Assembly: GCA_004194705.1 (NCBI GenBank)
Contig: SADC01000339.1
Span: 1 to 64,000 of the forward strand
Direction of reading: 5' to 3'
DNA length: 64,000 nucleotides
From: Ditylenchus dipsaci
Taxonomy: Eukaryota > Nematoda > Chromadorea > Rhabditida > Anguinidae
Positions 1,385-64,000 of the stretch are shown piece after piece. How positions within the stretch are numbered: position 1 is the first letter of the stretch; every line of letters starts with the position of its first letter. The position numbers and the translations under genes were made by a program. The notes beneath the pieces were generated by a model. It worked only from the letters and a program-made list of their open reading frames with translations, was not told where the DNA came from and did not search any database.

Positions 1385-2598
1385 CAGTGCTGTAAATTTT
1401 GGAATTTCGGCACCGGCACACCGCACCGGGCACCAGCCTTGAAATTTTCTGCACCGGCACCGCACCGGACACCGGTGATGCCGGAGCCGGTGCTACCGCT
1501 GTGCCGGTGTCGACCGGACATTTTTTATATACCATATTTGCTCTAATAGAAGACCGGGTGTTATATTTTTTCAACCGTCCTCTAGGGGGTGTTATATTAG
1601 AGAAGGTGTTAATAATAGAGGGGTGTTCAATATTCAACCATGTCGCGCCAAAGGCGCTTGTTTTTTTCGGACAATACTTTTTTTGGCGCAAAAACACTTT
1701 TTTTGCGCAATCCACTTTTTGGCGCAAATTTTTGTTTTGCGTAATTAGATTGAAAAATTTTCAATTTTTTTTTTAAGTTCAACATCATCATGTAGCCCTG
1801 CTTTTCTAGTTTCTGATGAGTACCATTAATGCATTATCTTTAAAAAAATGTAAGAAGAAAGGTAAAGTATGAACAAAAATAGAGTAGCAATTTGTTCATA
1901 TTTTACCTTTTTGTTACATTTTTTAAAAATAATGCAATTTAATGGTACCTCATCAGAACTAGAAAGCAGGGCCACATGATAATGTTGAAGTTTAAAAAAA
2001 GTTGAAAATTTCAAATCTAAATTTGCGCCAAAAAGTGGATTGCGCCAAAAAAAAAGTATTGTCCTTTTTTTTTTACAAAACAACAAAAAAATTAGCCGAT
2101 CGAATATTTATTCCAACCATTGATCAAACCAGGAGGTGAAAATAACAACCAGAACAACATCAATCATAAGAAACAACAGAGGTGGAAACAAAAAAATTCG
2201 TTCTAAAACAAGAAAAAATTTCGATTTGCTTAATGTGTTGACTCTTGGGGTCTTATATTAGAGGGGGGTCTTTATATTTTTTCGTTCATCCTCTAGCGGG
2301 GGTTCTATTAAAGGGGGGTCTTATACATAGAGGGGGTCTTCTATTAGAGCAAATACGGTATGTTGAAAAAATAATCAATTTAAATTTTGAATTTTTTTCA
2401 GCTAAATGCAAATATGAACAATGTTATCGACATTATTGTGTTGTTCGAGCGAATTAAACTTAGTTAGCTGTTGCCGGTATGATAACATACCACTTGCTGG
2501 TGCGGCCCGGTTCGGCACCACCTCTAAAATGATGGCAAGGCACCACATCGGGCACCGGCGGTGCCAATGCCGGTCGGCGGTGGCCATTTACAGCACTG
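1385..2598. mobile_element. hAT-like element with GGCACCGG words; 8-bp TSD ATCTAGAC
   Basis: The ends are CAGTGCTGTAAAT and ATTTACAGCACTG. The exact 8-bp duplication ATCTAGAC lies at 1377-1384 and 2599-2606. Removing the element restores the right end of the surrounding pogo-like element. The outer 120 bases at each side consist of the word CACCGGCACCG and its complement. A third element (1531-2358) is nested inside. No transposase is present. Confidence 0.85.
1531..2358. mobile_element. ACCGTATTT-family element, nested
   Basis: The left end is ACCATATTTGCTCTAATAGA and the right end, reversed, is ACCGTATTTGCTCTAATAGA, flanked by TA. Inside, 1640-1780 and 1980-2090 form a second inverted pair built on the word TTTTTGGCGCAA. 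No coding capacity is recognised. Confidence 0.7.
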
Positions 2599-2613
2599 AT
2601 CTAGACTCGACTG

Positions 2614-3640
2614 TTCTTGCTTATAATATTTGAACTTTCACATATGTAATAAAAAGCATGCGCTGCACTCGTGACCAAAGTAAAAAGACAGGTTTTTTAC
2701 TAATAAAAAAAAGGTTTTTTGAAACTTTTGTGTTGATGAAATTTGTGTTAAGTTAAGAAATTTGTGTGTTACGAAGCGACATTAACACTCAAATAGCATT
2801 GATTAAAAGCTACTTTGATTCGACATCTAAAAGTAAATATGTATAACTACAAGTTTTATACAAATTTCTCTTGAAAAGTTATTTTGAACTTTGCTTGCAA
2901 TTTCAAAAAAACATGTTTTGCAAAAAATTTTGAAAATTCCTAAAACTCCGAACATTTTTTCACTTACAACTGATTCGAATATTTGTCGAATATTATTGTC
3001 TTGACAGGAGTCAAAATTGAAAGTGAATTTCAAGTTTTAGCAGCGTTTTGTAAGGAAAACAATCATGCTGAACACTAATTGTGTGTCAGATATCAGGTTG
3101 TAGCTAGCAAAAAAATTTTGCGTCAAAACGTTTTTTCAATCAATTTTTGATTTTCTTGCGACTGTTGCTTGACACTCTAATCACCCTTCATTTTGATAAA
3201 AAGAAGAAATATTTCTCTGGTGCAGTTTTTCATGCCTGTCAAATGCTATAAACTGTTCATTACAAAAACGGCTCTATCACACTTTATTGTGCAATTTCAT
3301 ACAAACACCGCTTTGGAAAAAAAACTTCTCTTTTCTTCGGACGAAAAAAGTTAGATTGTTGTGATAGAATAGAAAGTTCACACAAGGATGAAAGGAAGAG
3401 AATTTAGGCAGTCATTGACATATAAGATGTGAATAAGTTATTGTTCATATGATGGAAGATAAATGCCAAGGAACTAAAATTATCGATTTTTAGGTCCTGA
3501 AATATGGGTTGTATCCACTGCAACAAAGATTCTCAAACATTGAGGAGATTCGAAAAATGTATCATCCGCGATTTTTTCACAATTAAAAAAAATGACATTC
3601 ACTTCAACTCACGAAATTCCACTGAGTATTGATTGGACTA
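2614..3640. other. Gene-poor AT-rich stretch
   Basis: No exon or clear element end was seen. The sequence is low-complexity AT-rich DNA with poly-A and poly-T tracts. Confidence 0.4.
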
Positions 3641-3644
3641 ACGT

Positions 3645-3712
3645 GGTATTACTAAGTGATCTGAGCATATTTGTAGATATTAGCCAAACACTTGGTCGAC
3701 TGCACTGCTTTA
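3645..3712 (-). pseudogene. Decayed copy of a late prominin exon (exon 13 end)
   Basis: The minus strand reads TKCLANIYKYAQIT and then a stop. This matches TNWVANIDKYAQHVNHS in the larger prominin gene at 16112-16170. The nucleotides are clearly alignable (GAGCATATTTGTAGATATTAGCC here, GAGCGTATTTGTCAATGTTAGCC there, read on +). The stop and the lack of a usable donor indicate decay. Its position to the left of the other decayed exons keeps the exon order of the parent gene. Confidence 0.6.
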
Positions 3713-4000
3713 AATCAGGAGCAGTTTCGGTTGTTTTATTAATATTTTTCAAATAAATTTGATGGGTTGATAATAACAAATTTCCACTCCATAATTCATT
3801 ACGACAATTTAATTTGTTGAAATGGTATCAGCTCGATCACCAGACAAACGATACTCCAAACGAGCGGCAGCCGGTGAATTTGTCTCTTTTTTGGAAATAT
3901 TTGTCCGCGACATTTGTCACTTTTTGCTATTTTTTCCCGATATCCTTTGTCACCTCAACATTCCTTGATGTTACCTTACTAAAAATTCCAAAACCTTTAA

Positions 4001-5441
4001 CCCATTTCTGCCGAAACTGCGGTGCCTGGGACCCAAAAATTCAAATTTTTCAGAAAAAAAATTTTTTTTTGGAAATGTTCACACTATAGCGGTAAAATTA
4101 ACGGTTTTTTTTTATAAAACATTGTCAAAAATTGATGCGAGTTAGGAATCTTCGAGATATAGGCCAATTTTCAAGTCTCAGAACTCACAGATTTTTTTTT
4201 ATAAAATAAAAGATTTCATTTCTTAACATTATATTTTTTAAAGCATGTTACATATCAGCAACATCACACTTTTTTGCACCGTGTGGTCTGTTCGGTAGTT
4301 CGCAAAACTGCACATCGAAATCTTGATCGATTAACCTCTTGGCAAGTGAGCAAGTGGTCATATTGTTTTTATTCTGATTTTCGTCCTTGGACGCGATGGC
4401 GGATTTTGCATGGGCCGCAAATAGGATGTGGCAACGTTAGCGGCGAAAAGTCGAGGTTATGGAGTTGTTTGGATGTTGTTTTCGCCACAATTGCAGGGCA
4501 TTGTGGGACAGCAGTGTCTACTCCAAAACAAACAAGCATGACCACATCCACTTCATTGGATCCTATAGAAACGCAGGTAGTTGTTGATGTTTTGGTCCAT
4601 TTCTGTCGACACCTCCATGTTACTGGTTGTAGGCATGCACTGTGTCTTGGCTGATCAAGCTGAATTCTTTTCTTTTCTTTTAGCGGACCATCGACTGACA
4701 GACGTGCCATAGGCTCAGATTCATCAATTGTGTCAAATTAGAAGGTTATTGTCATTCCACGCCAGAACAAGCACTCCTAAACTTATTGTGATGAAACTAA
4801 AATACAAATGCGTTACATGACGACTCGTCCATCTGATTACTCACAGAAATCCTCTTTGCTGGAGTTGAACGTGTCAAACGGACATTTTTCTGTGCGGTGG
4901 CATTCACCAGTACCCAGTGTATCCCAATCCCCAATTTCTTCAAATTCAAACGCCAATTTGATGGACGGGAGAAGTTGTCGCCGTAGATGTGAAGTGGTTT
5001 GTCATCTGGAAGGCGGAGCACAATTTCTTCGCAACAGTGCCTCCAAGGCCAAGAGCAGCATCTCTCTCTTCACCAGCTCCTGATAGGGAAAAAAGAGATC
5101 AATATCCGGGGGTGTTGCACAAGCCACCAATATTTGAATCCTAAAGCGAATAGGTTTCCCGCGAATAAATTGTTTGGCTGAGTGTCGGCAAAGAATGGCA
5201 GATGCTCTCATCGATGCTCAATGCTCTCAAGTGAGCGTGTGCCTTGTAAGCGTTCATTCAAAATTTCAAAAAAATGTCGTGCCTTGCAAATTGTCTCCTA
5301 AAAGAATAAAGTAATCACTAGTTATAATGTAACTGTTTTTGACAACATTTTTATTATAAACCGATAATTTACCCCTATATATGACTTTTCAAAAAAATCA
5401 AAAAAATCATTTTTTTGGAAATTAATTCCGGCAGAAATGGG
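4001..5441. mobile_element. piggyBac-like element with TTAA target duplication
   Basis: The ends are CCCATTTCTGCCG and its exact reverse CGGCAGAAATGGG, flanked on both sides by TTAA (3997-4000 and 5442-5445), the hallmark of piggyBac insertion. The interior carries a degraded piggyBac transposase on the minus strand. At 1441 bp it is shorter than typical autonomous elements (about 2.4 kb). Confidence 0.88.
4280..5215 (-). pseudogene. piggyBac transposase remnant
   Basis: Fragments in several minus-strand frames follow the order of a piggyBac DDE domain. First comes a segment like GKPIRFRIQILVACATPP ending in FFPYQ, then GLGGTV, then LPDDKPLHIYGDNFS, which is the classic block around a catalytic aspartate. 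These are followed by LKKLGI with a following TGT-like block, SSKED, and CPAIVAK near 4495-4510, matching the P-x-CP-x-I/V block before MGGVD. At least four frame changes and several stops are present, and the N-terminus and C-terminal zinc-binding region were not found. It is a dead fossil of the transposase that mobilised this family. Confidence 0.8.
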
Positions 5442-5683
5442 TTAAACCGAGAGCTGAAAAAGGAACAAAAGAGAGAAGATACCTAAGGCCGGAGCGAAGA
5501 ATGACAGCATCAACAAGAGAAGAGAGCCATTTTTTGTCCCAAAAATATCTAAGGCTTTCTTAATCTTTTGTCTTTCTTTATTTTCACTAAATTTGTTGAT
5601 TTTATTTTTGGTATATTTGCCATAAGAGTCCAAAAACTAGTTATGTGATAACCATAAGACCTAGAATTGACATTTACTTGTCG

Positions 5684-5790
5684 CGCGACAAAAGTGACAA
5701 AAAGTGACAATCGTCGCGCGACAAAAGTGACAAAAAGTGACAATCGTCGCGCGACAAAAGTGACAAAAAGTGACAATCGTCGCGCGACAA
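5684..5790. repeat. 33-bp tandem repeat, three copies, with TCGCGCGA core
   Basis: Three near-identical 33-bp units each contain the palindrome TCGCGCGAC followed by AAAAGTGACAAAAAGTGAC. They form the right subterminal region of the hAT-like element at 3866-5821. A diverged counterpart lies in its left end (TTTGTCCGCGACATTTGTCA, near 3900-3920). Confidence 0.8.
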
Positions 5791-5869
5791 ATATTTCAAA
5801 AGTGACAAATGTCCGGTTGCCAAACGAGCTGTTTATTAATAGCTGTTTTTAACACCCTGAAATGCACAC

Positions 5870-7904: not shown

Positions 7905-8500
7905 CTTCAGCTCGACTTTTGAAAACCATTTCAACAAATCAAGTCAGGGTCGAAGAAAAAAAATGTAGCCAGTTCCAAACTTTTACTTTCAGCAGTTCTT
8001 TTGACTGGCTGTATTTGACCGTAGTGTCACCGAACTTAACAACAAACTTTTTTGCACTCTCGCCTGAGGGGCATTCCTTTTTAAATTTCAAATAGAATTT
8101 AGTAACACACACATTCGAGGCACTCCTAACTAAAAGCCATTTGCCTGCCTTTTTCGGCCAAAGCGAAATAAGATTGGTGTGTTTTAGGGGCATCAATCCA
8201 CAAAAAACTGGCTGAACCATAACTTACCACAAATCTCATCTACACATTATCAACAACCATGAATCTATCCCACAAAAACCATCCAGCAACAAATTGTTCG
8301 TAAACAAAAAACACAAGCAAACCCAACACGCCTAAAAAACAACTTCAAGCCTAACAACATGGCACGAGGCCGCTAAAACTCAACCCCAAACATACTGTAT
8401 ATAACGCTAGACCAGGGCCCGGCAATCCAAAATATGATCAAACACTCCGAAGAGGTTTGGCTCAGATAGAAACCATTAGGAATCTAATTTGATTCAACCA
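7905..8500. repeat. Tandem duplication, copy 1
   Basis: This copy is nearly identical to 8855-9444 apart from small indels. On the minus strand both copies hold a conserved open stretch reading WPKKAGKWLLVRSASNVCV followed by KFYLKFKKECPSGESAKKF and VVKFGDTTVKY. The product is not recognised. The composition suggests genuine or recently coding sequence, but the flanks of the frame differ between copies because of single-base indels. Confidence 0.75.
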
Positions 8501-9444: not shown

Positions 9445-9462
9445 CCTAACCTAATTCGATTT

Positions 9463-11939: not shown

Positions 11940-12177
11940 GAATTGTTTATTTATTGATGTATGCGAATTTCTCTATGCATATTTCCATCTCAAAATCACG
12001 GTATTTTTTGATATTTTTTAATTACCGATAGTCTGGGTCCTATCAAAAAGTGTAGCTCATTTCAGAGTCTTTGCTAAAATTCTCCGACAACCGAATGGAA
12101 TTTAATGGAAGTCAGTCTCAAGGTGAGCCAATGGAATTGTTGATGATTGATGATCAGGCCAGAAGAAAAGGTTTTAA

Positions 12178-14481: not shown

Positions 14482-17400
14482 CTTCATTAGAAGGCTCATT
14501 TATAATGCTGCAACAGATTTTCAATTAATTTCGCATTGACTTAAGAAGGGCTGCGAGCTTACTATTTGGGAAAAGGATGAATTCTGGCATATAAGCGCAC
14601 CAGAGAAGTACTAAGCATGATTATGGGTAGCATGAGCAGAAGACTTATCGCCATAGCCATCCATACTCCGTTCTAAATACATATTTATTGTTTAGTTGAA
14701 CTTATTGTTTATTTAGACAATAAATAGGCAATGCTTGTTACTGACACTAAATACTTCCTTTTGACCCTTAAAAGTTACCTTTAGTGCTGATTTTTTTTGA
14801 CTCCAAAAACTTAACATATTCTACTGTCGAAAAATTGAAGTACCACCAATAACCTGCATCTTCGATGGTTTACATAACAATTTTTTGATGAAAAATACTG
14901 TAAAGTTTTGTTGTTAACAATGGCAATTCCGACTTTTTAGATTCGTGGGGGTCACCTAGAATACGCAAGATGTTTTTTGAATTTTTTTATTTGAATTAAA
15001 TTTTTTAATTTCATTAATTAGACGAGCCGAAATGGGGGGGGGGATGAGAGAGGGAGGAGGTGGCCAATTATTTTTCGCGGGTGCGGGGGTTAGCAAGCTG
15101 GGAGCGGGAGTGACGGGCTCAGTGGCGGGGGCTGCGTGATTAATTTTCACACGAAGAGGCACGAGGGACGCCAACCTTAGTCAATACGGTAGATATTATT
15201 GTGTATACCGTATTTCTTCTAATTAAGCTCCCGGGGCTAAATTTTTTGGATGCCCAAAAATCTTGAAATTGTTTATCAAAAATTGCCCTAACACTGAAGT
15301 CCTAGTTGAAAAGAGGGGGAAGAGGGCTAAAGTAGGAGGGGCCTAAATAGAGGAAAAACGGTATTTACAAATATGTTAAACCCATCAGAAAACGCAGGCC
15401 ACTTTGATTTCTTTGTCGAACTTTTCTGCAAATGAAAAAAATGAGCATAAACCTAATCAAAATTACTAACAATTATTGATCAGGTTTCGCAATGGAATGA
15501 TATGATGATTATACAATCCGAAACAATATTTTCTACAATTTTTGCACAATTCATGGTTTTTCAATTGATTTTTAAAATTTTCGGTCTCTTATATAACGCC
15601 AATACAAAAGTATAAAGACTTGCGAGATATATTTCCCTGATATTTTATTTTGCTGAGATATGACTAGGGTTGGTTGATTGGTAATTACCCGGGTAATTAC
15701 CTGGGTAATTACCCGGAAAAATACTTTTCCGGCCTTATTTCTCGGTAATTACTTGTAATTACCCGAAATCACCCGGGTAATTACCCGGTGAAATACTTTT
15801 TCCGGAGAATTACCCAACCCTAGATAGGACCATATAAGTCAGACAATTTTTTGAGTACAACTAATGGTCATACAGTCATCAAAATTTTCACTAAATCAAA
15901 TACTAACTTTTTTTAACAGATATATTTTCAATATTATGCATTTCGAACCAACAAACAAAACTCACAAATGGATCTAGTGTATAGTCACAGACGGCGGCTC
16001 GTGTGTTTTCTGCTATGTTGCTGATTGGGACGCATGAGCTGATTTCTGTCATCATCTGCAATTTTTCACAATTTAAAGTCACTGAACCTACTCCAAGTCC
16101 TCGAAACTAACCGAGTGGTTGACATGTTGAGCGTATTTGTCAATGTTAGCCACCCAATTGGTCGACCACTACCTGGTTAGCCGAACCATACATTTTGTCG
16201 CTCAGTTGTCCAGATGCTAGCAAAGAACTGGTGTGTTGCAATTGACTGGCTACATCTGTAGCATTCAGCTGCATGCTTTCCAAATCTAGACCCAGCTTTT
16301 CTAGCCTTGTAGTAATGTCTTTCATTTGGCTCAGAAGTACTTGAGCGTCAGGTTTAAGGGCTTCTAAATAGGCTATACTACATCCACTTCTGGCATGGCT
16401 ACAGTTGACTTCTCAGCAGTGATTTTTCTGAGTTGGTGCAGCAGAGGGTCTACGTCAAAGTGTGAGGTCCAGGAACGAAGCTGAAATAATCAATTTTCAA
16501 GCCTATATTCGCGGTAAATTTTGCGGCATCAGGTGGTTTCTCCTGTTAACCAACTACTTGTTAGGTACGAGGAGAATTCAGTGTGAGGCTGTTAATTATT
16601 TGTATGCAAAATTTTTTTTGTGACAATACCTCTCTTGGTCCTCCAAGTTGTTTCTTATTTATTTTCCCTTTCATAAGTTACAGAAGGAATAAAAACGTAT
16701 TAGGTACGGTGAGAATGCAATTCAGCCCCATCCTTTCTTGCCTTGATCCTCCCTATTTTATGGCTCAGGTGACGAAAATAATGTGTTTTAGGACGAGGGT
16801 TGTCGAGTCGATGCCTCAAATACGAGTTTTAGACTGGAAAAGTCGAAAATATGCGAATATCGGTTAGAGTCAAGGCCTTGAAAAATTCCAGGCACTTGTT
16901 GGGTTGGGGGCGCGTCTCTCACTTATTTTGAAAAAAAGTTTAAACGACTCTAAGTAGTTTTTACATGCTTAAAACGATAAAAAAAGTTATTTTCTGACAT
17001 TTTCCACACAAAAAATAGATTTTTTGAAAAAAATTTTTTTGGCCAAAATTCGACTTTTTGCCCACAGAAAAAAAATCAAATCTGAGAATCGAATCGAGAA
17101 ACATCGAACTGACTTGGTCCTCCTGTGGACTTTCAAAAAAATTGTTTACAATCTGCCTTTGATATGGTGACGCCTACAAAAGTTCGATCCTGGGTAGTGT
17201 CCGACACTATTTTACACCCACATGTGGAAAAAAGTGTGAGACCCAGTGGAGAATCGGGCCTTTGGTGTTTCACTGTATAAAAGCTTGACTGTAGAAAATA
17301 TGTCTTTGAAAATTCACAGAGGGACCCATGGCAGTTTTTTCTAGTTCGACATGTTTATCGAGTATTCCTGTTTTCCTGTGAGGAAGAAATATCAAATCCT

Positions 17401-20400
17401 ATATAGTAAATTGATCATGCTCTACATGGTAAGAAAAACAGAAAATGCGAATTCCATTCTACAGTTCAGGGATGTCCGTTGTCAATCTTGTTATTAACAA
17501 ACCTCATCTATACCCGCCTTATTGATAGTTGCACGTTGATTTCGCCAAGCCTCTGAACTGCCGTTTCCACATCTGAAGTGTAGAAGTTGGGCATGTTGTT
17601 GAGTTGCATGGCATCTCCTGCCATTAACCTTTTTATCGACTCACTAAACGGCTAAAGATTAGTGAAAAATTAGTCGAATTTCATGAAATAATCACCTTAA
17701 TCCATCATATTCATCCTTGGGACCACCGTGGTTGAGCAACTGGAACTTTTTATCCATTCCAAAGATGGTGTAGAAGGTGGCTCCTCGCTTGCACCCTTTG
17801 ATAATGTCTAGCGGCTTGTGTTTGGCGTTAAATATCTGGGTATGTGGTGGTTCTGGACAGGGGAGACTTGGCGTCCTCACTTAGACCGTACACTTCCACT
17901 ATTCTGTCCAGCAAAGACAACATGTCTGAAATGGAAAAATATATAGAAATAAATTTCAAATGATACAAGCAATTTGGGGCTAGGATACATTTGGCAAAAA
18001 CGAAACTTGACAAACGTAGGTTTTGTCAAAACGGAACTTCTCAAAAACGAAAGTTCTCAAACGAAAGTTGTCAAAAATCACCTTGGTCGCCTTAGCAAAA
18101 AAAAATTTTTCCCAAAAGTCTCGAAAAGCATTTATATACACGTTTTAAGCATTTTTCAACAAAATTTTTTTTTTGTAAAAAATGCCAAAAAAAATTGCCT
18201 TGATCTCCCAAGCTGATTTTTTGACAACTTTCGTTTGAGAAGTTTCGCATTTGACAACTTTCGCTTTGACAAGTGTATCCTAGCCCAATTTGGCTTCACT
18301 CTATTCCTTGCTCACATGTTGATGTTTGCCCTTGCAGGCAAAAAAATTCATACATACAGTCGACTATCGATTTAATATACATCCGGGGGACCGACCTAGC
18401 TGTATGTTAAATCAAGAGTGTATGTTTAATCGGCTGTCCACTGTAGCAGTGTTTGGACTTTCTGAAAAGAGTCGTACTCGTAGTCGTACTTCGTACTGCT
18501 AAACTTCAACTGTCGTACTTCGTACTCGTACCTCGTACAACGAAAATTTTAAGCTCGTACATCTTACTCGTACATCGTACCTCTAAAATTTCTTCTCGTA
18601 CTTCGTACTCGTACCTCGTAGCACAAAAAATTTTGCTCGTACTTCGTACTCGTACTTTGTATAAAAACGGATTAGGTATTCTGGGAATAATTCGAAAAAA
18701 AAATTTGCATTGTCTTTTTTATTGAAAGGCATTAAGATCCGGCTTTTGGTAGTAAGCGCCAGGATTTGCTTGTGATTTATAAATACTTGTATTTTAGTTC
18801 GTACATCGTACTCGTATCTCGTACCTCTAAAATTTCTTCTCGTACTTCGTACTCGTACCTCGTACCACAAAATTTTAAGCTCGTACATCGTACTCGTACT
18901 TCGTACCTCTTAAATTTCTTCTCGTAATTCGTACTCGTAGTACGAGTACGTGTACGAGTACGAAGTACGAGTACGAGGTCCAAACACTGCACTGTAGCAC
19001 ACAAATTTTTTTTGGATGTCATGAGCAATGATGGGCATTTTAAAATTTTCGCTCCTGCTCTTACTCTAGCCTCTTGGCTATGCACCTTTTTCTCCTGCTC
19101 TTGGCTGACAGTCTTAAAATTTCCCCTCCTGCTCTTGGCTTGGAGCAAAACATCTCGCAGTCAGAGGGGAGCTAAGAGCTGAAAGATGCCCAGCACTGAT
19201 CACCCACTGGTAACCCATGAAAATATAGCAACTTTTTTTAATTTGATTTACTTCTACTTAGGTCAGGGCGGAGGGATAGAAGATGTGCATGTCAGCTCCA
19301 AAAAAATTATCGAGGAATCGCAAAGAGTTATACACATTTAAATATGGAATGTCATCTTCTAATAAGTCACGGTCAATTATTCAAAAAAATTATGTGAAAC
19401 TAGAAGGCGCCAGAGCGGCTCATATCCTATATCATTTATACTCAGCAGTAATTTATTTCAAATTCAAAATTGTGCCTGGTCTAGACAATGGATCTTCCAC
19501 GGGCAAGCATATGAGACTGCTTGCATTAGCGCCCACAAAGAGGAGGACAGCGGTGATCACAGCAAGAAGGTCATAAAAGCAAGGCACATCCAATTCCACT
19601 AAACAAAAAAAAATTGACTCAATAACCAAGTGGCAGAATAGACAAACTTTTTACCATGAGTAGAATTTGCCACCAGTAGATCTAACGCAGCAATCTGAAT
19701 AAATTTTTACATTTTAAGATGCTTCAAATTATCCTTACCATCATCGTGATAGCTAGGACGACGTCCACAACACCCGTAAAATAGGCCTAGAAGAAAAGAA
19801 AGAGCGATAAACACAAATATTCCAGTGATTATCAAGGAGATGATCCAACTGAAAAACAAAATTTGAATTCATGAGCGATCTGCAAATAAACTTTGATATT
19901 TTCGCGGGTAACTTTTTTAACGCCGCTAGAGAAAGGTTTCGCGTTTTTATCCTTCAGCCATCTAACATTTAACCAAAAAGTTTTAGGGCAAATACTCAAG
20001 TACTAAAATCTACAAAAGCATATGTTCGTCGCCATCTTTGAAATCACTTTTTAAAAATAATACTAAGAAATCGGGTTGGTACCCTAATTTTTAATTTTTT
20101 CATGAAAAATTTAAAATTTTTTGTTTTGGCCTTTCGAAAAGTGTGTTTCAAAATTCGGCCAAAATTTTTTGACAATTTTGCATTGTGCAAACTGCATTTG
20201 CATTTCTGCATTGCTAAGCCTTCAATCGGAGAACGAAAATACTTTGCAATGTAGTATCATAGTCTTTTGTTCAAATAGCTTATAAGTGACGACGGATAAC
20301 TGTCCTTTGCCAATTCAAATTTCATCAGTTTACGAAAATAGTTCAACTATTGAAAATTGTCAGCCAGGGGCCTATTCAAGAGATGAGAGTTGATAGTTGA

Positions 20401-26400: not shown

Positions 26401-29400
26401 GAGGTCAGCAGTTTCTCGTGAGGAAATGGCTGAGAGAGAAGTTTGATGAAGACGTTGTTGAAGCGATGGAATAGACGCATGGCTGGGTCATTGATGGAAC
26501 TAAAAAAAGGGTTAGATTTTTACTCACAGTCAATTAATTTACTTGCTCAGGTCGTTTTTTTAAATCAGGGGCTCTTCATACAGTTGCGGAAAAAAGTTAC
26601 CGCCCGATCAGAATTTCCACATTTTTTGAGAAAAAACTGTTTGAAATTTAATTATTTTTCAAACGGAAAGAAAAACGAAATAGACAGTTTTGTAGAAAAT
26701 TTCACGCTCTACAAAACTGGTATTTTTGTTCAAAAGATTCATTTAAAATTTATGCAAAAGAATCGCAAAGTTTGAAACAATGCAAAAATAAGGTCACGAA
26801 AAAGTTACCGCCCGATAACATTTCCTTGTATTTTGTGGTGGTTTTATGAATTTTTCATGTGTTATTATGTTTAGATGCGTCCTAAATCGATTGATCAAGT
26901 TACGGAAAGGCTTATTGTTCGCTTACACGACACAGATGAAAGATGGAGCTTCACAAAAATCGCTGATCACGTGGAATACCGAAGGAAAGTGTTCGTGATG
27001 CTTACCATCGCCAAAAGAATCCGAAAGTGCACAAAAGGATGGCCGGAAGCGAAGACAAGTGGCAGGTAGCATTATAATTAACTTGGCACACGATGACATC
27101 AGTAGTTGTTGCAGGGTCGACCGAATGATTGCTCGAAAATCGAGGGAGAATCCAAAGCTTACGGCCCTGAATTTCGTGAAGAGCTAAAGTTGGATGACAT
27201 AACGGTGCACAGTACAGAATCGTCTCATTGAGGTTGCTTTAATATTTACCCGTGTTGATTGATGTTTTTTAGGTTGGTCTATTTGGTCGTCGTCCAGCCG
27301 AAAAGCCGTTTATATCGCCAAAGAATGTCAAAGAACGTCTCAGTTTTTGCGAAGGAACATGAAAATTGGACTGTCGATCAATGGAAGAGCGTGCTTTGGT
27401 CGGATGAATCGAAGTTCAACATGATCGGAAGTGATGGAAAAGGTTGGATTTTGTTTTTCTTTTTCGTCGTAAACAATGTTTTTAGGTTATGTAAGGCGTC
27501 CGTTAATAAGCGCTTCGATCCAAAGTACACAGACTGGTGAATGGCAAGATGATCGGTTTCAGTATCAACAGATCCTTTCGGAAACAATGCTCTCTCATTT
27601 GGAACATCTTGAAAACTCGCATCCGGATGAAAACTTGGTACTAGTAGATTAACTCCTCTCTGACCTTTATTATTCGTGACTTTTCTAGATCTTCCAGCAG
27701 GACAACGATCCCAAGCACAAGGCCAATATCATCACAAAATGGCTCCAGGACAACAGCGTCGATATTATGCAATGGCCCGCTCAATCTCCAGACCTAAATC
27801 CGATCGAGAATCTGTGGTATGAAGCTGAACGAAGAATGGGTGGGCACAAGCACAAGAAGTCGGACGAACTATCAAAGCGGTGAAGAAAGCATGGGAGTCG
27901 ATTACGAAAGCATAAATTTTTGCATAAATTTTTAATGAATCTCTTTGAACAAAAATACCAGTTTTGTAGAGCGTGAAATTTTCTACAAGACTGTCCATTT
28001 CGTTTTTCCTTTCCGTTTGAAAATAATTAATTCAAACAGTTTTTCTCAAAAAAATGTGGAAATTCTGATCGGGTGGTAACTTTTTTCCGCAACTGTATAT
28101 ACCCGACAGTTTTTTTCAAAACTTTTGCGATTTTGCGAAAACGACTGCTAAAATTGGGATAATGCGATTAATCGGACTAAACTAACGAAAAGTAACTGAC
28201 GAAAGATTTCAAAAATGTGGGTAAAAACGTGTCACAACCAAAGCATGAACGAACTTAAGAAAGCGTGGTAATAGTGAGACTCGACTTTATCACGATTATT
28301 CTATGACCAGTGGAATCTATTCAAATTTGAAACATTCAGCGATGGAGGCTGCGGAGTAGTATTTAAATTTGAAAACACCTCGCAAATTCTACCACTGTTG
28401 AGTGTTACAATTTGAGACTTGTGACTGTGAACGTATCGATCAGGGCTGTACCGGATACCAAAAAATATCGGATCGGATATCGGATACCGGCTATGGAAAA
28501 TATCGGATCGGATATCGGATACCGGATATGAAAAAGTGCCGGATATCGGTTATCGGATATCGGATTTCGGATATTTGGATGAATTTTGAAAAAAAAAGTT
28601 GAAAAATTTTTCTAAATTTCAAAAAAGTTTTAAAAAATTTTTCCGAAAATTGGCCATTTTTTCGGATATCGGATACGGATGTCAAAAGTGCCGGATATCG
28701 GATATCGGATATCCGGTACAGCCCTGGTATCGATGCACCCTATTTCCGAAATGGTGAGAGAGAAGTCTGGTATAGCATTACTGAAGCGATTGAATAGACG
28801 ATGGATGGTTTTTTTGATCGAACTGAATATTGACGGGCTCAATCCTTTGTCGTAAATTATTTGATTAATGTAACCCATCTGTCCACCTTCAATAACGGCC
28901 ATTATTAAATACTTCTGAAACCCATGCAGAAAATTTGCGCGTTGTGTTTAGATAACCGCGAGATTGTGGATAAGCTCGATACCCTGTCCGTCGGTTCCTT
29001 AACTGGACCCGAATTATTATGACTTTACTGTCGTTAATGATGGGTCATCGAATATCTACAAATTATTAGAAGTGCAATAAATTTTTGGTTAAGTTTGAAA
29101 ACCGCGATTTGAAGTTTAAATTTTAAACTCTATTAAAAAATATAGATCTTTTTTTATAGAAAATGTTGATTCCGAAACTCACAAAAATATATTTTAGCGT
29201 TTTAAGTACTTTAAAACCTATCAAATAGCGTTAGTCACTTTGAGTTCAATCAAAAAAAATCCCGATATGAAGGGTACATGTTTTGGTGCCAACTGCGCCA
29301 ACTAATTATTATTTTGCACTTTAGGTCGACCGTAGGTGCCCATCCTGGTACAGGCTGTAAAAACATCCGGAAGATACATCCGGATGTGGATGTGTACATC

Positions 29401-42225: not shown

Positions 42226-42931
42226 CAGGGCCGCAACTTCAACTTTTTCAAAGGGGGGGGGTAATTTCTTTGATATTACCCCTATAGATTCAAGTCAAGG
42301 GGGGGGGGGTAATTTTTAAAATGAGATTTTTGTGTATTTTCTTATCTTTTTTTGTAATTTTTTTCAATATTTATTAGATTTTTTCAATTATTATTTTTAA
42401 CAGATTTAAGCAAAGCATAAACGATGGTTAAACTTAGCATATTCGTTAATTATATCTTGAGCTGGCAAACTTATGTCTTTGTGAACAAAAATAAGAGCTA
42501 GATGATTTAGACGTTCATCAGCCATTGAATTCTCAAAACATTTTTTATTTGTTTCAAAACACTGAAAGCCCTTTCAGGTGTTGCAGTTGCTGTTGGAATT
42601 GTAGCTAAAATTTGAAAAATTTGTGCAATTTGATTACAGAAGGCATCCTTTGAGTGTCGAATGAGTGCACTACATCCTGATTAGAATTGAATTGAATTAT
42701 AATTATATTTTTGACACATCCAATTAATCTACCTACAAGTTTTTTATATAATAAAATATGTGCAAATTACGTGTTTTTAGTGAAAACTTCACAAAATAGT
42801 GAAAAAAAATCACAAAACCTTGGTTACAGCAGTCTCCCTCTAGAGAATACCCCCCCCTTAGGGTGGCCTTCGGCCACCCTAAGGGGGGGGGGGGTAATTA
42901 CCCCTATGACCCCCCCCCAAATGCGGCCCTG
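42226..42931. mobile_element. hAT element, deleted, with transposase C-terminus; TSD CCTGGGCA
   Basis: The ends are CAGGGCCGCA and TGCGGCCCTG. The exact 8-bp duplication CCTGGGCA lies at 42218-42225 and 42932-42939. The 706-bp body retains the end of a transposase gene on the minus strand, linking this end type directly to the hAT superfamily. Confidence 0.92.
42415..42660 (-). pseudogene. hAT transposase dimerisation-domain remnant
   Basis: Minus-strand frames read QIFQILATIPTATATPERAF, SVLKQIKNVLR and, after a frame change, MADERLNHLALIFVHKDIS then INEYAKFNHR. This is the C-terminal hAT dimerisation block: a P-T-A/S-x-x-x-E-R-x-F-S core, then K-x-x-LR, then the E-R-L-x-x-L-A run. The single frame break and the loss of everything upstream make it a fossil. 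Confidence 0.88.
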
Positions 42932-46419: not shown

Positions 46420-46728
46420 GGCTAGGGAAACTTGCCAAAAACGAAATTTGCCAAATACGAAATTTGCCGAAACGAAATTTGCCAAATCGAAATCTGCCAA
46501 ACGCAGGTTTTGCCGAAAAGGAAATTCAAATGAATTTAAATGAAAATATATACGTTGTAGCCATTCAACGGTAGGCAAATTCGTTGTAGCAAAACCTACG
46601 TTTGGCAAATTTCGATATGGCAAAATTCGTTTTGGGAAAATTCGTTTTGGCAAGTTTCGTTTTGGCAAATTTCGTTTTGGCAAAACATACGTTCGGCAAA
46701 TTTCGTTTATGGCATGTTTCCCCTAGCC
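46420..46728. mobile_element. GGCTAGGG hAT-like MITE with TTTGCCAAA words; TSD CGAAAATC
   Basis: The ends are GGCTAGGGAAAC and GTTTCCCCTAGCC. The exact 8-bp duplication CGAAAATC lies at 46412-46419 and 46729-46736. It is absent from duplication copy 1 at about 36398. The arms are the word AACGAAATTTGCCAA and its complement. The length is 309 bp, against 308 bp for the relative at 17978-18285. Confidence 0.92.
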
Positions 46729-52373: not shown

Positions 52374-52615
52374 GGCGCTAGTAGCGAATACCCCCCCCCT
52401 CCCCCCAAGCATCCGACCTTTAAAAATTTCTGTAACTACCCTTGCAAACAACAAGTTTAGGCTTAGCCCTTAGGCTTGGGGTAGGCCAGCGTACGGAAAT
52501 TGTGACTAATGAAGAGTTGCGCACATTTTCCGGGGTCTGGACATAATTTGGGTACTTTTTACTAAAGTAAAAAAAGTGAAAATCGTTGGGGGGGGGGGGT
52601 TTCGCTACTAGCGTC
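52374..52615. mobile_element. GGCGCTAGTAG hAT-like MITE, copy C; TSD GAATATTT
   Basis: The ends are GGCGCTAGTAGCGAA and TTCGCTACTAGCGTC. The exact 8-bp duplication GAATATTT lies at 52366-52373 and 52616-52623. This is the best-preserved copy of the family (242 bp). Confidence 0.92.
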
Positions 52616-52706: not shown

Positions 52707-53334
52707 TAGGGTAAAATTAAAGGATCAAATCGTTAAACAATCAAATCGATAATCGAAATTTTTTTGATTAATGAGTGCGCTACCGATTCCTTTAATAAGG
52801 CGACCGGCCGCCTTATTATTTGGATGCCCGAAAATCGACAATTTGGAATTCGATCTCGAGATTTTGGGTGCTCAACCAAAATCTGAAAAGTGCAATCGGT
52901 AGAGCTCATACGAATTAAGAAAACGTATAAAACAGGTTCGCGGAATCTTTCTCTGAGATGAGATATAGGTCTTCAAAGTTGAGGGGGGGGGGTGGGGTTG
53001 GTGCGGCCGCCTTATTAGAGAGGGCCGCCTTATTAGAGGAAATACGGTAATTGATTTCGATTAATCAAATCGAAAAAAATTTTTGGAAAGCATCTCTCAG
53101 ACGCCACGCTAGAGAGTGATATTGCCAAATACTTGCGAGGCAGCACAGCCAGAGTAGGGAAGCGTACAGCATTCTTTGCCCACCAATTGTACATTCGATC
53201 GATTATACATTCGATTTGATTCGCTTAATCGAATCGATAATTGAAATCGAAATTTTCGATTAATCGAATCGATAATCGAAATTTCTATTAGTCAGTGCAA
53301 TTAATCGATTTCGATAATCGAATCGACAACCCTA
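52707..53334. mobile_element. hAT-like element of ATCGATTAATCGA words, with nested element
   Basis: The ends are TAGGGT and ACCCTA. The near-exact 8-bp duplication is CTTATAAC / CTTCTAAC. The arms are filled with AATCGAATCGATAATCGA words. The ACCGTATTT-family element at 52782-53048 is nested inside, with the words AATAAGGCGGCC. Confidence 0.75.
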
Positions 53335-57817: not shown

Positions 57818-58674
57818 GGCGCCAAGTAGCGTATATCCCCCCCAAAAAACCTGACCTTATACTAAAGCGCTGTAACTACCTTTGAACAACAAGTTTAGGC
57901 TTAGCCCTTAGGCTTGGGGCTAAACTTTTAGAAGGAAAAATTTTGGAGGGGGGGGGCGGAGTGGGCGGAGGTATTCTGCACTAGGGTCAAAAATGTCATG
58001 TACGTCATCAGAAAGTGGAAGTGACTTCAAGATCCGAGGCGAAATCATCCAACAACCGCGTAGTTACTTTGATCTTTTTATGCGTGTCTCAATCCTAACT
58101 AGACTAGCGTACGGAAGTTGTGACTAATAAATAGTTTACAGTCGACTCTCGATTTAAGGACACCCCCAAAAGTTCGTTCCCCAGCTGGTCCGACACTTTT
58201 TTCAGCTCAATTTTCGAAGCTTTTTAAAATTCTGTTGTGACAGTCTGGTCACAAATATCGCAAGGATGTCGACTTTGCCGATCGTTTTTCAAAATCAAAA
58301 AATTTTTCTTCTAAAAAAGCAAACCCTCGATTTAAGGACAGGCTTTTTTCTAAAATCCCTGTCCTTAAATCGAGGAAGAAAAATTTAGAAGAAAAAGTTT
58401 TTGGATTTTGAAAACGATCGGCAAAATCGACATCCTTGCGATATTTGCGACAAGACTGTCAAAAACAGAATTTCAAAAAAGCTTCGAAAATCGAGCTAAA
58501 AAAAGTGTCGGACCCAGCTGGGGAACGAACTTTTGGGGTGTCCTTAATTCGAGATTCGACTATACGCACTTTTTCTAATGTCTGGGACATTAATTTGGGT
58601 AGTCTTTACTAAAGTTTCAGAAGGAAAAATTTTTGGGTCAAGGGGGCGGGGTGGTGATATTTGCTACTAGGGTC
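57818..58674. mobile_element. GGCGCCAAGTAG hAT-like MITE, copy D, with nested pogo-type element
   Basis: It starts GGCGCCAAGTAGCGTATATC and ends GCTACTAGGGTC. The core AACAACAAGTTTAGGCTTAG identifies the family. The flanking 8-mers no longer match well. A 424-bp element at 58139-58562 interrupts it cleanly. Confidence 0.85.
58139..58562. mobile_element. pogo-type MITE (TTTAAGGACACC word), TA target
   Basis: CAGTCGACTCTCGATTTAAG at the left. The right end, reversed, is TAGTCGAATCTCGAATTAAG, and TA lies on both sides. The arms are homologous to 22137-23261 through GTCCGACACT and the AACGATCGG block. It sits inside copy D of the GGCGC family. Confidence 0.9.
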
Positions 58675-58836: not shown

Positions 58837-59069
58837 ACCATTTCCTCTAATAGGCGCACCGGTGCGCTTATTTTTCAACTCCGAAAATTGGAAAATTGGA
58901 ATTCAATCTCGAGATTTTGGGCGCTTAAGTGGAATCGGCAGAGCTCGTGGGAGTTAAGAAAACGCAATAAACAGCTTTGCAAAATATTGACTCTGCACCG
59001 AGATCCAGGATCTCAAAGTTGAAGGGATGCGTTTATTAGAGCGGGTGCTCCTGTTAGAGGAAATACGGT
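58837..59069. mobile_element. ACCGTATTT-family element (TAGGCGCACCGG word)
   Basis: ACCATTTCCTCTAATAGGCG at the left. The right end, reversed, is ACCGTATTTCCTCTAACAGG. The interior contains CTCGAGATTTTGG, shared with 52850. Confidence 0.7.
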
Positions 59070-59427
59070 ATTTTACTTAATTAAAAATCCGGAACGTCCT
59101 CTACAACATGTGTATTTTAAAAAACCGTTCGCTTATAACATTTTTGTAAGATGGAGCCTAAAAACTGGGTAAAGTTGGCAGGAAACTGAGGTGGCTGACT
59201 TAACAATTCTGCATGCCGTCTTCATAACATTTCACTCATACCCAGTCAAACTTTTGTCACCTATTCGCCTGGTCATAAGTTCTCTACAACACGTGGAAAA
59301 CATTCCTCTGTCCCTAGTCATAATCATGCCGTGTCTGAAAAAACGGCTCGAGAGGTTCTTTGGTTAGTTGCGAAAAATGTGCAACAGGTGGATAGCATTA
59401 TTGATCTATGTACAGTGAGCCGTGTTC

Positions 59428-59618
59428 ACCGTATTTTAACCTTATATCTCAGCCAAAAACAAACATTTGCGAATCTTTTTTTTGCGTTCTCTTAGTTATT
59501 ACGAGTTCACCTGAATACATTTTTCAGACCGAACATCTCAAAATGGACCTTAAAATTCTGAGATTTAGTAGGGGTTGAAAAATTACTCTCATTCGAGAGT
59601 AAATAGAGGAAATACGGT
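59428..59618. mobile_element. ACCGTATTT-family element
   Basis: ACCGTATTTTAACCTTATAT at the left. The right end, reversed, is ACCGTATTTCCTCTATTTAC. Confidence 0.65.
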
Positions 59619-60407
59619 AACCCAAGTATATGGCTCAGAATTCCATATTTTGATATGAATGATATTTTGCGGCTTCCGAACATACCCCTTCCAAAAGCCA
59701 CGGAAATATATATCAAACCCTCTCCCATTTTATCGATAAATTTAGTCTCAGATCCGAGGCTTAGGCTCAAGGCCTGAACATTGCTAATGTCATCTTTTGC
59801 TTAAAAAAAAACTTTTAAAAATGGTGATTTTAGGTATTCTCCAAAAGTTAAGGGGGAGGATGGGAGTGGCCATGCGCCGTATTAATTATATTGCAGTAGC
59901 GTCGACATTTTTATAAAAATGAAGAAGTACATTAGGTCATTAAGTGCCATTTCGTTCGTCCAGTTCGAGCCATTTCGTCCAGTGCTCATTGAGTTTTGAG
60001 TACAGAAAATAAAGATTTTGACGTCGAATTTCGAAAATTCTAGTATTTCGGTTCTCAAAAAATTATAAATATTTATGAAAAGACGTTTTCCACCGCTGCT
60101 TCAGATACATATTGATTTATTTACATTTACGTCAATAACAAAGTAAAAATTTTAATTAGAAAAATATAGAAATTCTTTTACATCCTTTTACAATTTTATC
60201 TGGTAGTTTGCATGTTCAGCATGTAGGAATGTCAAATCAAGGACCTTTAAAAAAATAATTATTAATTTTTTGACTGACAATGTTAATCTTGACAAAAAAG
60301 AAACATAGACGTGCAGTAAACATGTTGATAAAAAACAACAAAATCTCTTTTAAAATCCAGTGTGAATTTTTATTAAAAATTAATAAAGATATTTTTTAAA
60401 AACTTAC

Positions 60408-62387: not shown

Positions 62388-62725
62388 CGCGCGCAATGTG
62401 TAACAACTTTTTTTGTTGTTATTTGTTTTCAAAATTTTGTTCTCTTTTAAATTATTAACTTCTTGTATTTATTCCTTATCTTTAGTTTGTTACAAAAACA
62501 TCAGCAAGGACTACAGAATTAGTTTATTGAATATAAAAAAAGATTACAATAAAGTTGTTTACAGCTGTGAGAATGTAAAAAAACTTTTTATTTTTCTTTC
62601 AAATATTTTAAGAACCTCATTTTTTAGTTTATAAAAAATTTGATTTTGAATGAATAACAAAAAAAAACGACAAAAGTGTGGGCTCGGCTGAAGAACATTA
62701 TTAAATTTTTTAACACAGAGAATTA

Positions 62726-62795
62726 TAGGGTTGGTATTTTTCCGGGAAAGTTGAATACGGAAAATTCCTGACAATTTTCGTATCACCCAACTCTA
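62726..62795. mobile_element. Miniature hAT-like element, about 70 bp
   Basis: TAGGGTTGGTATTTTTCCGGG at the left and CACCCAACTCTA at the right. The ends match those of 15665-15822. The flanks GAGAATTA and GAAAATGA match at 6 of 8. Confidence 0.55.
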
Positions 62796-62854
62796 GAAAA
62801 TGAGCAAACTGTATGGGCCATTAAAATTAAGTTAAGATTTAATAATGGACGAGG

Positions 62855-63745
62855 ATTAAACGTGCCACTTTTTGGATGAAAGTGCCACATTTTTTGAGTT
62901 TTGGTCAACAAAGCTGAATGTGCCACCTTTTGTTGAAAAGTGCCACCTTATTTAATGCACTCTACACCTACTACGCCACAACGCTAATACTACACTCACC
63001 TACTTTTCAAGTCTCACAGAATAGTGTTCTTCTAACCGATTATTTCACTACAATTCCATCTTAATTATGTGCATATGAATAATCAATTGGAACCGGATTT
63101 ATATGCTCTTAAAAATGAGAAATACGCGCAAAAATATACCTTAAAAACAATGCTATGCCCTAAAAATTTACGCTTAAAAAAGTTTCATAGGCTGAATTGG
63201 GCTGTTTTACAGATAAAACATACTTTTACAGCCTCTTTTATCAAAAAAAATTCTGAGATTTTACAAACAATACATACCTCATCCTGGGAAATGATTAAAA
63301 TTTCGGCGTCATTTTGATATGCCCCCCTCCCTAATCCTCGGACCTACTAAGATATTCCAAAAAAAATAAGCAAAAACATATAAATCCGGATCCTAATCAT
63401 CAATGACTAGCGCTCCGCATTCTTTTGCCTTACGCTTTCTTTTTTCCTTGGCTTTCTTTCGATAGGCACATCCGTAATTTCTTGTGGATAGAATCCTTCT
63501 CGTCAGATTATCCACATTTCAACAAAAGTTGTCACTTTTGAATTAAAGGTAGCACTATTTAGTTAAAGGGTGGCACTTTTCAGCCAAAGGTGGCACATTT
63601 CAACGAAAGCTGGCACATATCAACAAAAGGTGGCACATTTCAGCTTTGTTGACCGAAACTCAAAAAAGGTGGCACTTTTCAGCAAAAAAATGGCACTTTT
63701 CAGCAAAAAACTGGCACATTTCAACTAAAAGGTGGCTCTTTTCAG
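62855..63745. mobile_element. Foldback element of AAAGGTGGCAC words
   Basis: The left arm (62858-62960) reads GTGCCACCTTTTGTTGAAA-type words. The right arm (63510-63740) reads TTTCAACAAAAGGTGGCAC-type words, about ten units. The AT-rich centre has no recognised gene. Confidence 0.75.
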
Positions 63746-63928
63746 ATTTATATTTAATAATGTAACCCGTGACTTATCTGTCACGAAAGCAAAACAAGTT
63801 TTGAATAAAAATTTTAATAAATAAAAAGAGACGCTACTTAAGCTACTCAGTTTTACCCCTCCCAATGATTTTTAGAGGTCCCTAAAGCATACTTTTTGAG
63901 AAAAATTTGGAATTAGTAATGGTTAGCA

Positions 63929-64000
63929 GTGCTGGCATTTCGAATTTTTGGCTCCGGATCTGGCTCCCGGCTCCGTTGGGGCAAATTTCCCGCTCCGGAT
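63929..64000. mobile_element. Left end of a hAT-like element of GGCTCCGGATCTGG words, cut by the window edge
   Basis: CAGTGCTGGCATTTCG opens it, as in the CAGTGCTG-ended elements at 1385 and 19015. It is followed by CTCCGGATCTGGCTCCCGGCTCC words running to the last base. Confidence 0.6.

What the first reader, a model, noticed from the sequence alone, without database searches (positions are those of the whole stretch)
1385..63999. A guild of 'one-word' hAT-like elements: each family fills its ends with its own short repeated word
Seen directly: about fifteen elements with 8-bp target duplications, exact in nine cases or more (ATCTAGAC, AAACGAGC, CAATTTGG, CACTGTAG, GTATCGAT, TCCTGGTA, CCTGGGCA, CGAAAATC, GAATATTT). 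The subterminal 50-350 bp of many of them are nothing but degenerate copies of one word, different in each: CACCGGCACCG, TCGTACTCGTAC, GATATCGGATACCG, GGATGTGGATGTC, TTTGCCAAA, TTGACAACTTTCG, GGTAATTACCC, AATCGATTAATCG. Known: hAT transposases bind short motifs repeated in subterminal regions. Inference: the words are transposase-binding arrays that expanded and diverged family by family, so a set of cognate transposases with different DNA recognition may exist elsewhere in this genome. The extent of word amplification looks unusual.
Basis: partly seen in the sequence, partly recalled or inferred. Interest (0 to 1): 0.85.

Follow-up and report, generated by a model that had tools for sequence, protein, structure and literature searches.

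The report
Jumping genes with private DNA words
In what is almost certainly a plant-parasitic nematode genome, many related families of jumping genes each fill their ends with copies of their own short DNA word, probably docking sites for their own enzyme, and several families with unrelated words arrange them in the same unit of about 40 letters.

Summary
All nine named 8-bp duplications are exact; in nine of ten window families tested the commonest end 6-mer beats every dinucleotide shuffle. Copies elsewhere in the 227-Mb assembly (almost certainly Ditylenchus dipsaci) carry the same words: of 52 fetched copies 28 have exact duplications, 8 have 7 of 8. The predicted cognate transposases exist: hAT domains are abundant (150 of 150 scored over cut-off), word arrays lie beside them, and the words differ. 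Window element E5 has a transposase-encoding partner with matching ends (L086). I tallied about 30 words, at least 20 clearly different; they follow transposase lineages, and relatives keep the end class but change the word. New: in eight of 30 arrays, with unrelated words, a 41-bp unit stands out, typically a few words at 5-7-bp steps plus an AAATTT core, and in one family its number varies from copy to copy; it is not universal. Binding is not shown. GGCTAGG-ended elements (E3, E8), E2 and E9 lack a transposase link. Verdict: new variant of a known kind, hAT subterminal repeats.

The parts
1385..2598 (.). E1, CAGTGCTGTAAA ends, duplication ATCTAGAC, word CACCGG; interrupted by a nested unrelated element at about 1522-2372
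   Evidence: nested element; copies
3866..5821 (.). E2, GGCAgCCGG ends (9 of 12), duplication AAACGAGC, 33-bp tandem tract with GTGACAAA at 5680-5791; superfamily not established
15665..15822 (.). E10, TAGGGTTGG ends, duplication 7 of 8, word GGTAATTACC
   Evidence: copies
17978..18285 (.). E3, GGCTAGGATACA ends, duplication CAATTTGG, word TTGACAAC; hAT membership not shown
   Evidence: copies
18447..18989 (.). E4, CAGTGTTTGGAC ends, duplication CACTGTAG, word TCGTAC (33 copies both strands), 41-bp unit
   Evidence: copies
19029..19191 (.). E13, possible element with GCTCCTGCTC word; not upheld by shuffles
   Evidence: 4 against maximum 5
28441..28726 (.). E5, CAGGGCTGTACC ends, duplication GTATCGAT, word ATCGGATATC; deletion derivative of an L086-type transposase element
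   Evidence: copies
29351..30678 (.). E6, CAGRGCTGTAAA ends, duplication TCCTGGTA, word GGATGT (48 copies both strands) in two arrays
   Evidence: copies
42226..42931 (.). E7, CAGGGCCGCA ends, duplication CCTGGGCA; minus strand holds a decayed hAT-like piece (19.4 bits, below the 21.4 cut-off); no word array noted
46420..46728 (.). E8, GGCTAGGG ends, duplication CGAAAATC, word TTTGCCAAA; hAT membership not shown
   Evidence: copies
52374..52615 (.). E9, GGCGCTAGTAGC ends, duplication GAATATTT; superfamily not established; no word array noted
52707..53334 (.). E11, TAGGGT ends (6 of 12 matching), duplication 7 of 8, word TCGATTAATCGA; another element appears nested inside
63927..64000 (.). E12, CAGTGCTGGCA end, word GGCTCCGGA; continues to contig position 64844, duplication ATGGTTAG
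   Evidence: L112

Best explanation
The window elements with CAG- or TAG-type ends are non-autonomous members of hAT transposon families. Each family's subterminal word array is the binding array for the BED-type finger of its own transposase lineage. The transposase cuts at a short terminal repeat whose class is shared by related lineages, while the array, many copies of a short and often palindromic site, decides which transposase may use an end. Arrays are partly built of tandem units that grow and shrink by whole units, so a changed word can spread through an array and change together with the finger; this would separate sister families that still share end classes. Shown: ends, duplications, words, copies, transposase-encoding elements with different words, the partner of E5, lineage-specific words, the unit structure in part of the families. 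Inferred: binding, co-change of finger and word, spread by slippage or unequal exchange, and the reason for the 41-bp unit.
For: Exact duplications and 28 of 52 copies exact. Seven transposase-encoding elements closed with exact 8-bp duplications and 11-12 of 12 TIR bases, with seven different words at their ends. E5 against L086: 134 of 148 at one end; at the other end 86.5% over 74 bp locally but 83 of 114 globally. L086's last exon matches Hermes transposase structures, E 2.5e-6. Word labels need 12 changes for 13 labels, the minimum; shuffled mean 20.9, 0 of 200 as low. Relatives of L086 have the end class CAGGG(C/T)TGYA with other words. BED region less conserved than C-terminal domain in 6 of 6 pairs of four proteins. 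Hermes and Ac fingers bind such repeats cooperatively (PMC10368747, PMC3260210, passages).
Against: No binding was tested. BED domains are recognised only partly: of four full BED stretches scanned over Pfam's range, L093 is over the cut-off (23.4 against 20.6 bits), L081 and L086 are below it (13.2, 13.1), and neither L084 nor the C1 element gives a hit; a genome search gave only 11 BED hits. Four of 20 further transposase flanks have no array over shuffles. Several transposases are frame-broken. Faster change of the BED region is expected without co-change. Partners for most window families were not found.
Confidence: 0.8

Rival explanations
1. The arrays are ordinary satellite or microsatellite growth inside elements with no part in transposition; words differ because each family happened to expand a different seed.
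For: E1 copies differ widely in unit number (16, 7 and 3 cores). Tandem repeats are common in this genome: 23 of 98 window chunks exceed shuffles. L124 looks like a plain satellite.
Against: Arrays adjoin the terminal repeats at both ends of the closed transposase elements, are shared across copies with different duplications, and words follow transposase lineages. Top counts of 9 or more occur in 12 of 20 transposase flanks against 10 of 98 window chunks.
Confidence: 0.08
2. The arrays are sites for host proteins (chromatin, transcription or silencing factors) rather than for the transposase.
For: Nothing here excludes it; the AAATTT core could be a host site or a bend. Passages on Hermes discuss host factors and bending of AT-rich ends.
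Against: A host protein would not explain some 20 or more different words that follow transposase lineage; known hAT fingers bind such repeats.
Confidence: 0.08
3. The GGCTAGG-ended elements (E3, E8) are not hATs but another superfamily with 8-bp duplications that uses similar one-word ends.
For: Their two exact TIR strings were not found in the first 30 transposase loci. Their duplications show T at 2 in 4 of 10 and A at 7 in 5 of 10, unlike the CAG and TAG classes. Their unit is about 15-16 bp.
Against: Same duplication length and same one-word habit; only 10 duplications were counted; I ran no search for their transposase.
Confidence: 0.5

Closest known systems
Hermes (hAT) ends with AAGT/AAGC subterminal repeats (PMC10368747, passages)
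   Same: 8-bp-duplicating hAT; BED fingers bind short repeats inside the ends, two fingers cooperatively on a quasi-palindrome
   Different: Hermes has 17 and 14 short sites scattered in ends of about 450 bp; here one word fills most of the end, in part of the families in 40-41-bp units, and the word differs between families of one genome
Ac/Ds of maize, AAACGG subterminal repeats (PMC3260210, passages)
   Same: One hexamer repeated near both ends, bound cooperatively; many short non-autonomous copies with the same ends
   Different: One word for the whole Ac/Ds family; three copies suffice there, against e.g. 33 (E4) or 53 (E1 copy L133) here
Herves (CG/AATTCAT motif) and, as cited there, Tag1 and Tol2 (PMC3143072, passages)
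   Same: Transposase binds a repeated subterminal motif; that paper notes that motif differences between hATs ensure specificity
   Different: Motifs compared between elements of different species; here many private words within one genome
hAT-derived CGG-binding proteins with BED and Hermes DNA-binding domains (PMC8097297, passages)
   Same: Related hAT fingers prefer different 8-mers (CGG, GCGC, AT-rich); motifs of the four hAT-encoded proteins match subterminal regions of their own elements
   Different: Protein arrays across many species; here candidate words are read from the elements beside the genes

Membership tests
hAT superfamily (CAG/TAG-ended families) | 8-bp target duplications | tested here: met
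   Exact or 7 of 8 for window E1, E4, E5, E6, E7, E10, E11, E12; copies
hAT superfamily (CAG/TAG-ended families) | transposase with hAT C-terminal dimerisation domain between such ends | tested here: met
   PF05699 over cut-off in L081, L084, L086, L093; seven elements closed. For window families only E5 has such a partner
hAT superfamily (CAG/TAG-ended families) | N-terminal BED-type zinc finger | tested here: inconclusive
   L093 over Pfam cut-off; L081, L086 below; L084 and C1 element no hit; C..C/H..H spacing seen by eye
hAT superfamily (CAG/TAG-ended families) | catalytic RNase H-like core residues | not tested
   L086 gave only a weak PF14372 match (15.7 bits, cut-off 27)
hAT superfamily (CAG/TAG-ended families) | duplication bias T at 2 and A at 7 (nTnnnnAn; consensus recalled) | tested here: met
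   26 of 40 and 32 of 40; list made by hand; L032 and L033 and the E2 and E9 duplications left out
hAT superfamily (GGCTAGG-ended E3, E8) | 8-bp target duplications | tested here: met
hAT superfamily (GGCTAGG-ended E3, E8) | cognate hAT transposase | not tested
   Only an exact TIR-string look in the first 30 transposase loci, none found
hAT superfamily (GGCTAGG-ended E3, E8) | duplication bias nTnnnnAn | tested here: not met
   4 of 10 and 5 of 10
MITE | short non-coding copies with shared TIRs and separate duplications | tested here: met
Plain microsatellite or satellite | array independent of element ends and of gene lineage | tested here: not met

The most novel reading that the evidence does not exclude
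One genome holds a radiation of hAT transposases kept apart by exchangeable end codes. A conserved 40-41-bp scaffold (about four finger sites 5-7 bp apart plus an AAATTT core, about four helical turns) is reused while the word in all its slots is rewritten together, giving many mutually separate transposase-end pairs. The scaffold would reflect a fixed geometry of several BED fingers of one transposase assembly on one unit, with the A/T core as a bend or a second contact.
Probability: 0.35. Interest if true: 0.82.

Novelty: new variant of a known kind. Interest (0 to 1): 0.64.

Why it matters
Transposons that share ends can be mobilised by each other's enzymes. Here the sequence suggests how related families may escape this: the cut site is kept and the addressing code is rewritten. 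Because each element displays many copies of its presumed binding word beside the gene for the presumed reader, one genome offers some 20 or more natural finger-word pairs, including close transposases with slightly different words (AATCCC and GGGAAT, C-terminal domains 68 of 88 identical). That makes the BED recognition code, which also underlies host proteins derived from hATs, directly testable. A shared 41-bp unit across unrelated words would also constrain models of the hAT assembly at transposon ends.

Tried and rejected
A universal 41-bp unit was rejected: only 9 of 30 arrays have their top lag (20-65) at 40-42, and the median z over families is highest at lag 47 (0.85), with 0.60 at 41, while the mean is highest at 41 (2.09); others have 15-16, 30, 35-36 or 60. 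The lag was noticed in the first 23 arrays; of 7 arrays added afterwards 3 peak at 40-42, where about 0.5 is expected (hand arithmetic). Families are not independent, so p = 9e-5 is optimistic.

A universal AAATTT core was rejected: 11 of 23 families individually exceed shuffles and 6 have none. AAATTT is itself 1.5 times over shuffles in the rest of the window. Core and lag are not independent measures.

Autonomous partner of E4: the TIR pattern gave 235 matches (control 33), of which the first 100 were listed; the longest short-range inverted pair that I saw there (L108, 1.57 kb) is an E4 shell holding another element, not a transposase. Partners of E1 and E6 among L086's relatives: the ten flanks fetched gave other words (no shuffle control made there). 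BED genome search: 11 hits, none near a listed hAT hit. E13 as a member was not upheld. Literature: searches (and 31, 65 on the species) listed no account that I recognised of such a word guild or of a 41-bp hAT unit; the library is open-access only, I saw listings, passages of six papers and the whole text of one.
Full report
Setting. The window is bases 1-64000 of contig C338 of a 226,978,389-base, 1359-contig assembly. The best hit of a hAT protein from this assembly is a Ditylenchus dipsaci protein, 90% identical over 67% of the query. The published D. dipsaci assembly has 227.2 Mb, 1,394 scaffolds and 37.5% GC (PMC6929663, whole text). The host is almost certainly this stem nematode; no tool states it.

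Observation. Corrected ends: E1 1385-2598, E2 3866-5821, E3 17978-18285, E4 18447-18989, E5 28441-28726, E6 29351-30678, E7 42226-42931, E8 46420-46728, E9 52374-52615, E10 15665-15822, E11 52707-53334. E12 starts at 63927 and closes outside the window at 64844. A strict search for exact 8-bp duplications with nearly perfect TIRs gives 10 pairs in the window (four of them named elements) against 0-1 in five shuffled windows. The commonest 6-mer of the subterminal segments exceeds all 200 dinucleotide shuffles in 22 of 23 arrays, for example 33 against a maximum of 9 for TCGTAC and 48 against 8 for GGATGT; E13 fails and E3 passes narrowly. I chose the segments by eye, so this confirms what was seen rather than sampling blindly. 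E7 and E9 have duplications but no array that I noted.

Are they families? Yes. First-look candidates in the genome ranged from 215 (E6) to 1151 (E8); only 40 per search were scored, so copy numbers are unknown. I fetched 52 copies, chosen by me, of seven families (E1 8, E3 6, E4 14 including four found by TIR pattern, E5 10, E6 3, E8 5, E10 6). Of these 28 have an exact 8-bp duplication next to the family ends, 8 have 7 of 8, and 16 gave no such pair; in four of the 16 (E1) no right TIR was found within the stretch fetched. The exact duplications differ from copy to copy, so these are separate insertions. Scored E5 copies are 89-94% identical to the window copy over nearly the whole element and E6 copies that cover the element 86-96%, so those arrays were there before the copies spread.

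Are there transposases with other words? The Pfam hAT dimerisation domain gave 150 scored hits, all over the cut-off, from 2005 candidates. Seven transposase-encoding elements could be closed with exact 8-bp duplications and 11-12 of 12 matching TIR bases: L081 (TAGAGATGGAGG, word CGGGAC), L084 (TAGTGTTGGAG, GCGAGA), L086 (CAGGGCTGTACC, ATCGGATATC), the element on C40 (CAGACATGTGCA, GGCCGGGC), and those on C1 (TAGGCTTGGGCG, AATCCC), C25 (TAGGCTTGGCAG, GGGAAT) and C542 (TAGGGCTGATCG, GCGGCT). Shorter elements that hold only the C-terminal domain also close exactly: L031, L036, L037, L040, L042 (CGGGAC), L032, L033 (CGGGAA) and L058 (GGCCGGCCGAAA). An element on C847 (GGCACA) shows GGTGTACG on both sides when read by eye. 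Two more have the word at both ends but were not closed (C885 ACGCCTA; L093 GTTCGA). In 20 further 3' flanks, picked by me from the remaining hits for variety, 16 have an array over shuffles and 4 (L118, L121, L125, L128) have none; L124 looks more like a plain satellite. As control, a top 6-mer count of 9 or more occurs in 12 of these 20 flanks and in 10 of 98 window chunks; but 23 of 98 chunks exceed their own shuffles, so exceeding shuffles alone is weak evidence here. In the first 30 loci 23 exceed shuffles, but in eight of these (L035, L036, L037, L040, L044, L049, L057, L058) the top word is not that of the element that holds the domain. Counting window, transposase and neighbouring arrays together I tallied about 30 words; some are near relatives (AACCGGTTA and CCGGTTAACCG, ATATCGC and CATCGC), so at least 20 clearly different ones is the safe statement.

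Partner of a window element. L086 is a 2663-bp element with duplication CCCTGCAT and a transposase whose last exon scores 54.2 bits for the hAT domain and matches Hermes transposase structures at E 2.5e-6. E5's left 150 bp match L086's right end at 134 of 148 positions; the other ends match at 86.5% over 74 bp locally and at 83 of 114 positions globally. E5 is thus most likely an internal-deletion derivative of this type. No such partner was found for E1, E4, E6, E10, E11 or E12; only E4 was searched for by its ends (100 of 235 matches listed).

Words follow lineages, and change. On a tree of 32 C-terminal domains (36 rows before identical ones with the same label were dropped; several labels were set by hand from the element's own array, against or without the automatic top word), 13 word labels, one of them 'none', need 12 changes, the least possible; shuffled labels need 20.9 on average and none of 200 shuffles was as low. 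Near-copies inflate this, only 6 of 28 inner branches are well supported, and CGGGAC, CGGGAAT and TGGGATT are each two groups on the drawn tree. A sister pair with different words is supported: the L057 (GGCCGGCCGAAA) and L093 (GTTCGAAC) domains (97/98), whose elements both begin TAGGGTTGTC. In the L086 lineage ten 3' flanks of relatives gave ATCCGATATC (L149, L150, L151), TTCCGATTTCC (L147, L148), TTCTGTTTTTCTG (clear in L153 and L155, weak in L152 and L156) and ACCCGC (L154, 40% identical), with ends CAGGGCTGTACC, CAGGGCTGCATC, CAGGGTTGCACC and CAGGGCTGCAGC for the first three words; no shuffle control was made on these ten. So the end class is kept while the word is rewritten. Among four proteins the BED region is less conserved than the C-terminal domain in all six pairs, for example 33 of 50 against 68 of 88; that would be expected anyway.

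The unit. Autocorrelation shows that some arrays with unrelated words share a unit. The top lag between 20 and 65 falls at 40-42 in 9 of 30 arrays, and lag 41 exceeds z = 3 in eight: CACCGG, TCGTAC, GGATGT, GGCTCCGGA, GTTCGA, GAGCGCTCGA, GGGTACCCGAA, GGCCGGGC; the mean z over families is highest at 41, but the median is not. Between successive AAATTT cores with at least two words between them the distance is 39-43 in 15 of 20 (E1), 16 of 19 (E4), 2 of 2 (E12), 31 of 32 (GTTCGA), 8 of 14 (GAGCGCTCGA), 1 of 1 (CGGGAC) but only 5 of 13 (E6); GGGTACCCGAA gave no countable pair and GGCCGGGC was not counted. Exact words between cores are three or four in most pairs of E1, E4, E6 and E12, two to four for GTTCG, and four to six for TCGA; the commonest steps are 5-8 bp, 12 in E12. 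Both strands were read, so a core pair can count twice. AAATTT totals 65 in the first 23 arrays against a shuffle mean of 18.9 and maximum of 29, and 8.5 per kb against 3.5 in the rest of the window. It is not universal: 11 of 23 arrays are over shuffles on their own and 6 have none. The E1 family shows the unit as a unit of growth: 16 cores in L133 (619 bp), 7 in L134 (315 bp), 3 in the window copy. This speaks for spread of changes by slippage or unequal exchange, which is an inference.

Mechanism. In Hermes, BED fingers bind short subterminal repeats, two fingers bind a quasi-palindromic pair cooperatively, and Tol2 has a palindromic pair (PMC10368747, passages); in the same paper mutating some inner repeats left about 70% activity, so not every repeat matters. 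In Ac, AAACGG repeats are bound cooperatively and three copies are said to be required (PMC3260210, passages). Many words here are palindromic or occur in both orientations (GAACGTTC, GGTAATTACC, CCGATATCGG, GACATCCGGATGTC). The most likely reading is that each array is a dense field of finger sites for its own transposase, and that word replacement is how related families stop using each other's ends. Binding is not shown here.

Limits on membership. The CAG and TAG classes meet the hAT tests that I could make: duplication length, transposase domain, and a T-at-2/A-at-7 duplication bias (26 of 40 and 32 of 40; the consensus is recalled). BED recognition is only partial. The GGCTAGG class (E3, E8) does not show the bias (4 and 5 of 10), and its two exact TIR strings were absent from the first 30 transposase loci. 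E2 and E9 were not pursued. I keep all four apart.

Novelty. Subterminal repeats of hATs, their binding by BED fingers, and the diversity of hAT finger motifs across species are known (PMC8097297, PMC3143072, passages). A survey of transposons in plant-parasitic nematodes reports hAT as widespread; the word 'subterminal' does not occur in its main text (PMC11118728, passages). In the searches named under Tried and rejected I saw no account of a guild of many private words in one genome or of the shared 40-41-bp unit. I call it a new variant of a known kind.

Noticed in passing
window about 33000-38800 and 44700-49100: Two long similar copies of the same sequence, read by eye; one carries an insert at about 34100-36050 with a 180-bp tandem repeat rich in GTTGAGGGTCAAC (tandem repeat).
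   Followed up: no
window 26578-28098: Element with long inverted ends (68 nt at 93%, 104 nt at 85%) and an inside that looks by eye like a broken Tc1/mariner transposase.
   Followed up: no
window about 1522-2372, 49510-49730, 51590-52350, 52780-53050, 58840-59070, 59430-59620; also L108 and L112: A recurring second kind of element with TACCGTATTTCCTCTAATA-like ends and G- or C-runs; the copy inside E1 gave 1496 first-look candidates, 40 of them scored.
   Followed up: partly
window about 7950-9450: Two adjacent near-identical stretches of several hundred bases, read by eye.
   Followed up: no
window 11700-11950, 47770-48010, 52374-52615, 57830-57980: E9-like stretches with GGCGCTAGTAGCGAATA-type ends and C- or G-runs; E9 has an exact 8-bp duplication but no known superfamily.
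   Followed up: partly
L057 and L058 (G000:C200 and C1105): A GTTCGA word element lies inside a GGCCGGCCGAAA word element that holds a hAT domain: one guild member has jumped into another.
   Followed up: partly
L124 (G000:C1332): A (GCATTTGGGCACC)n satellite-like tract about 450 bp downstream of a hAT domain; unclear whether it belongs to the element.
   Followed up: no
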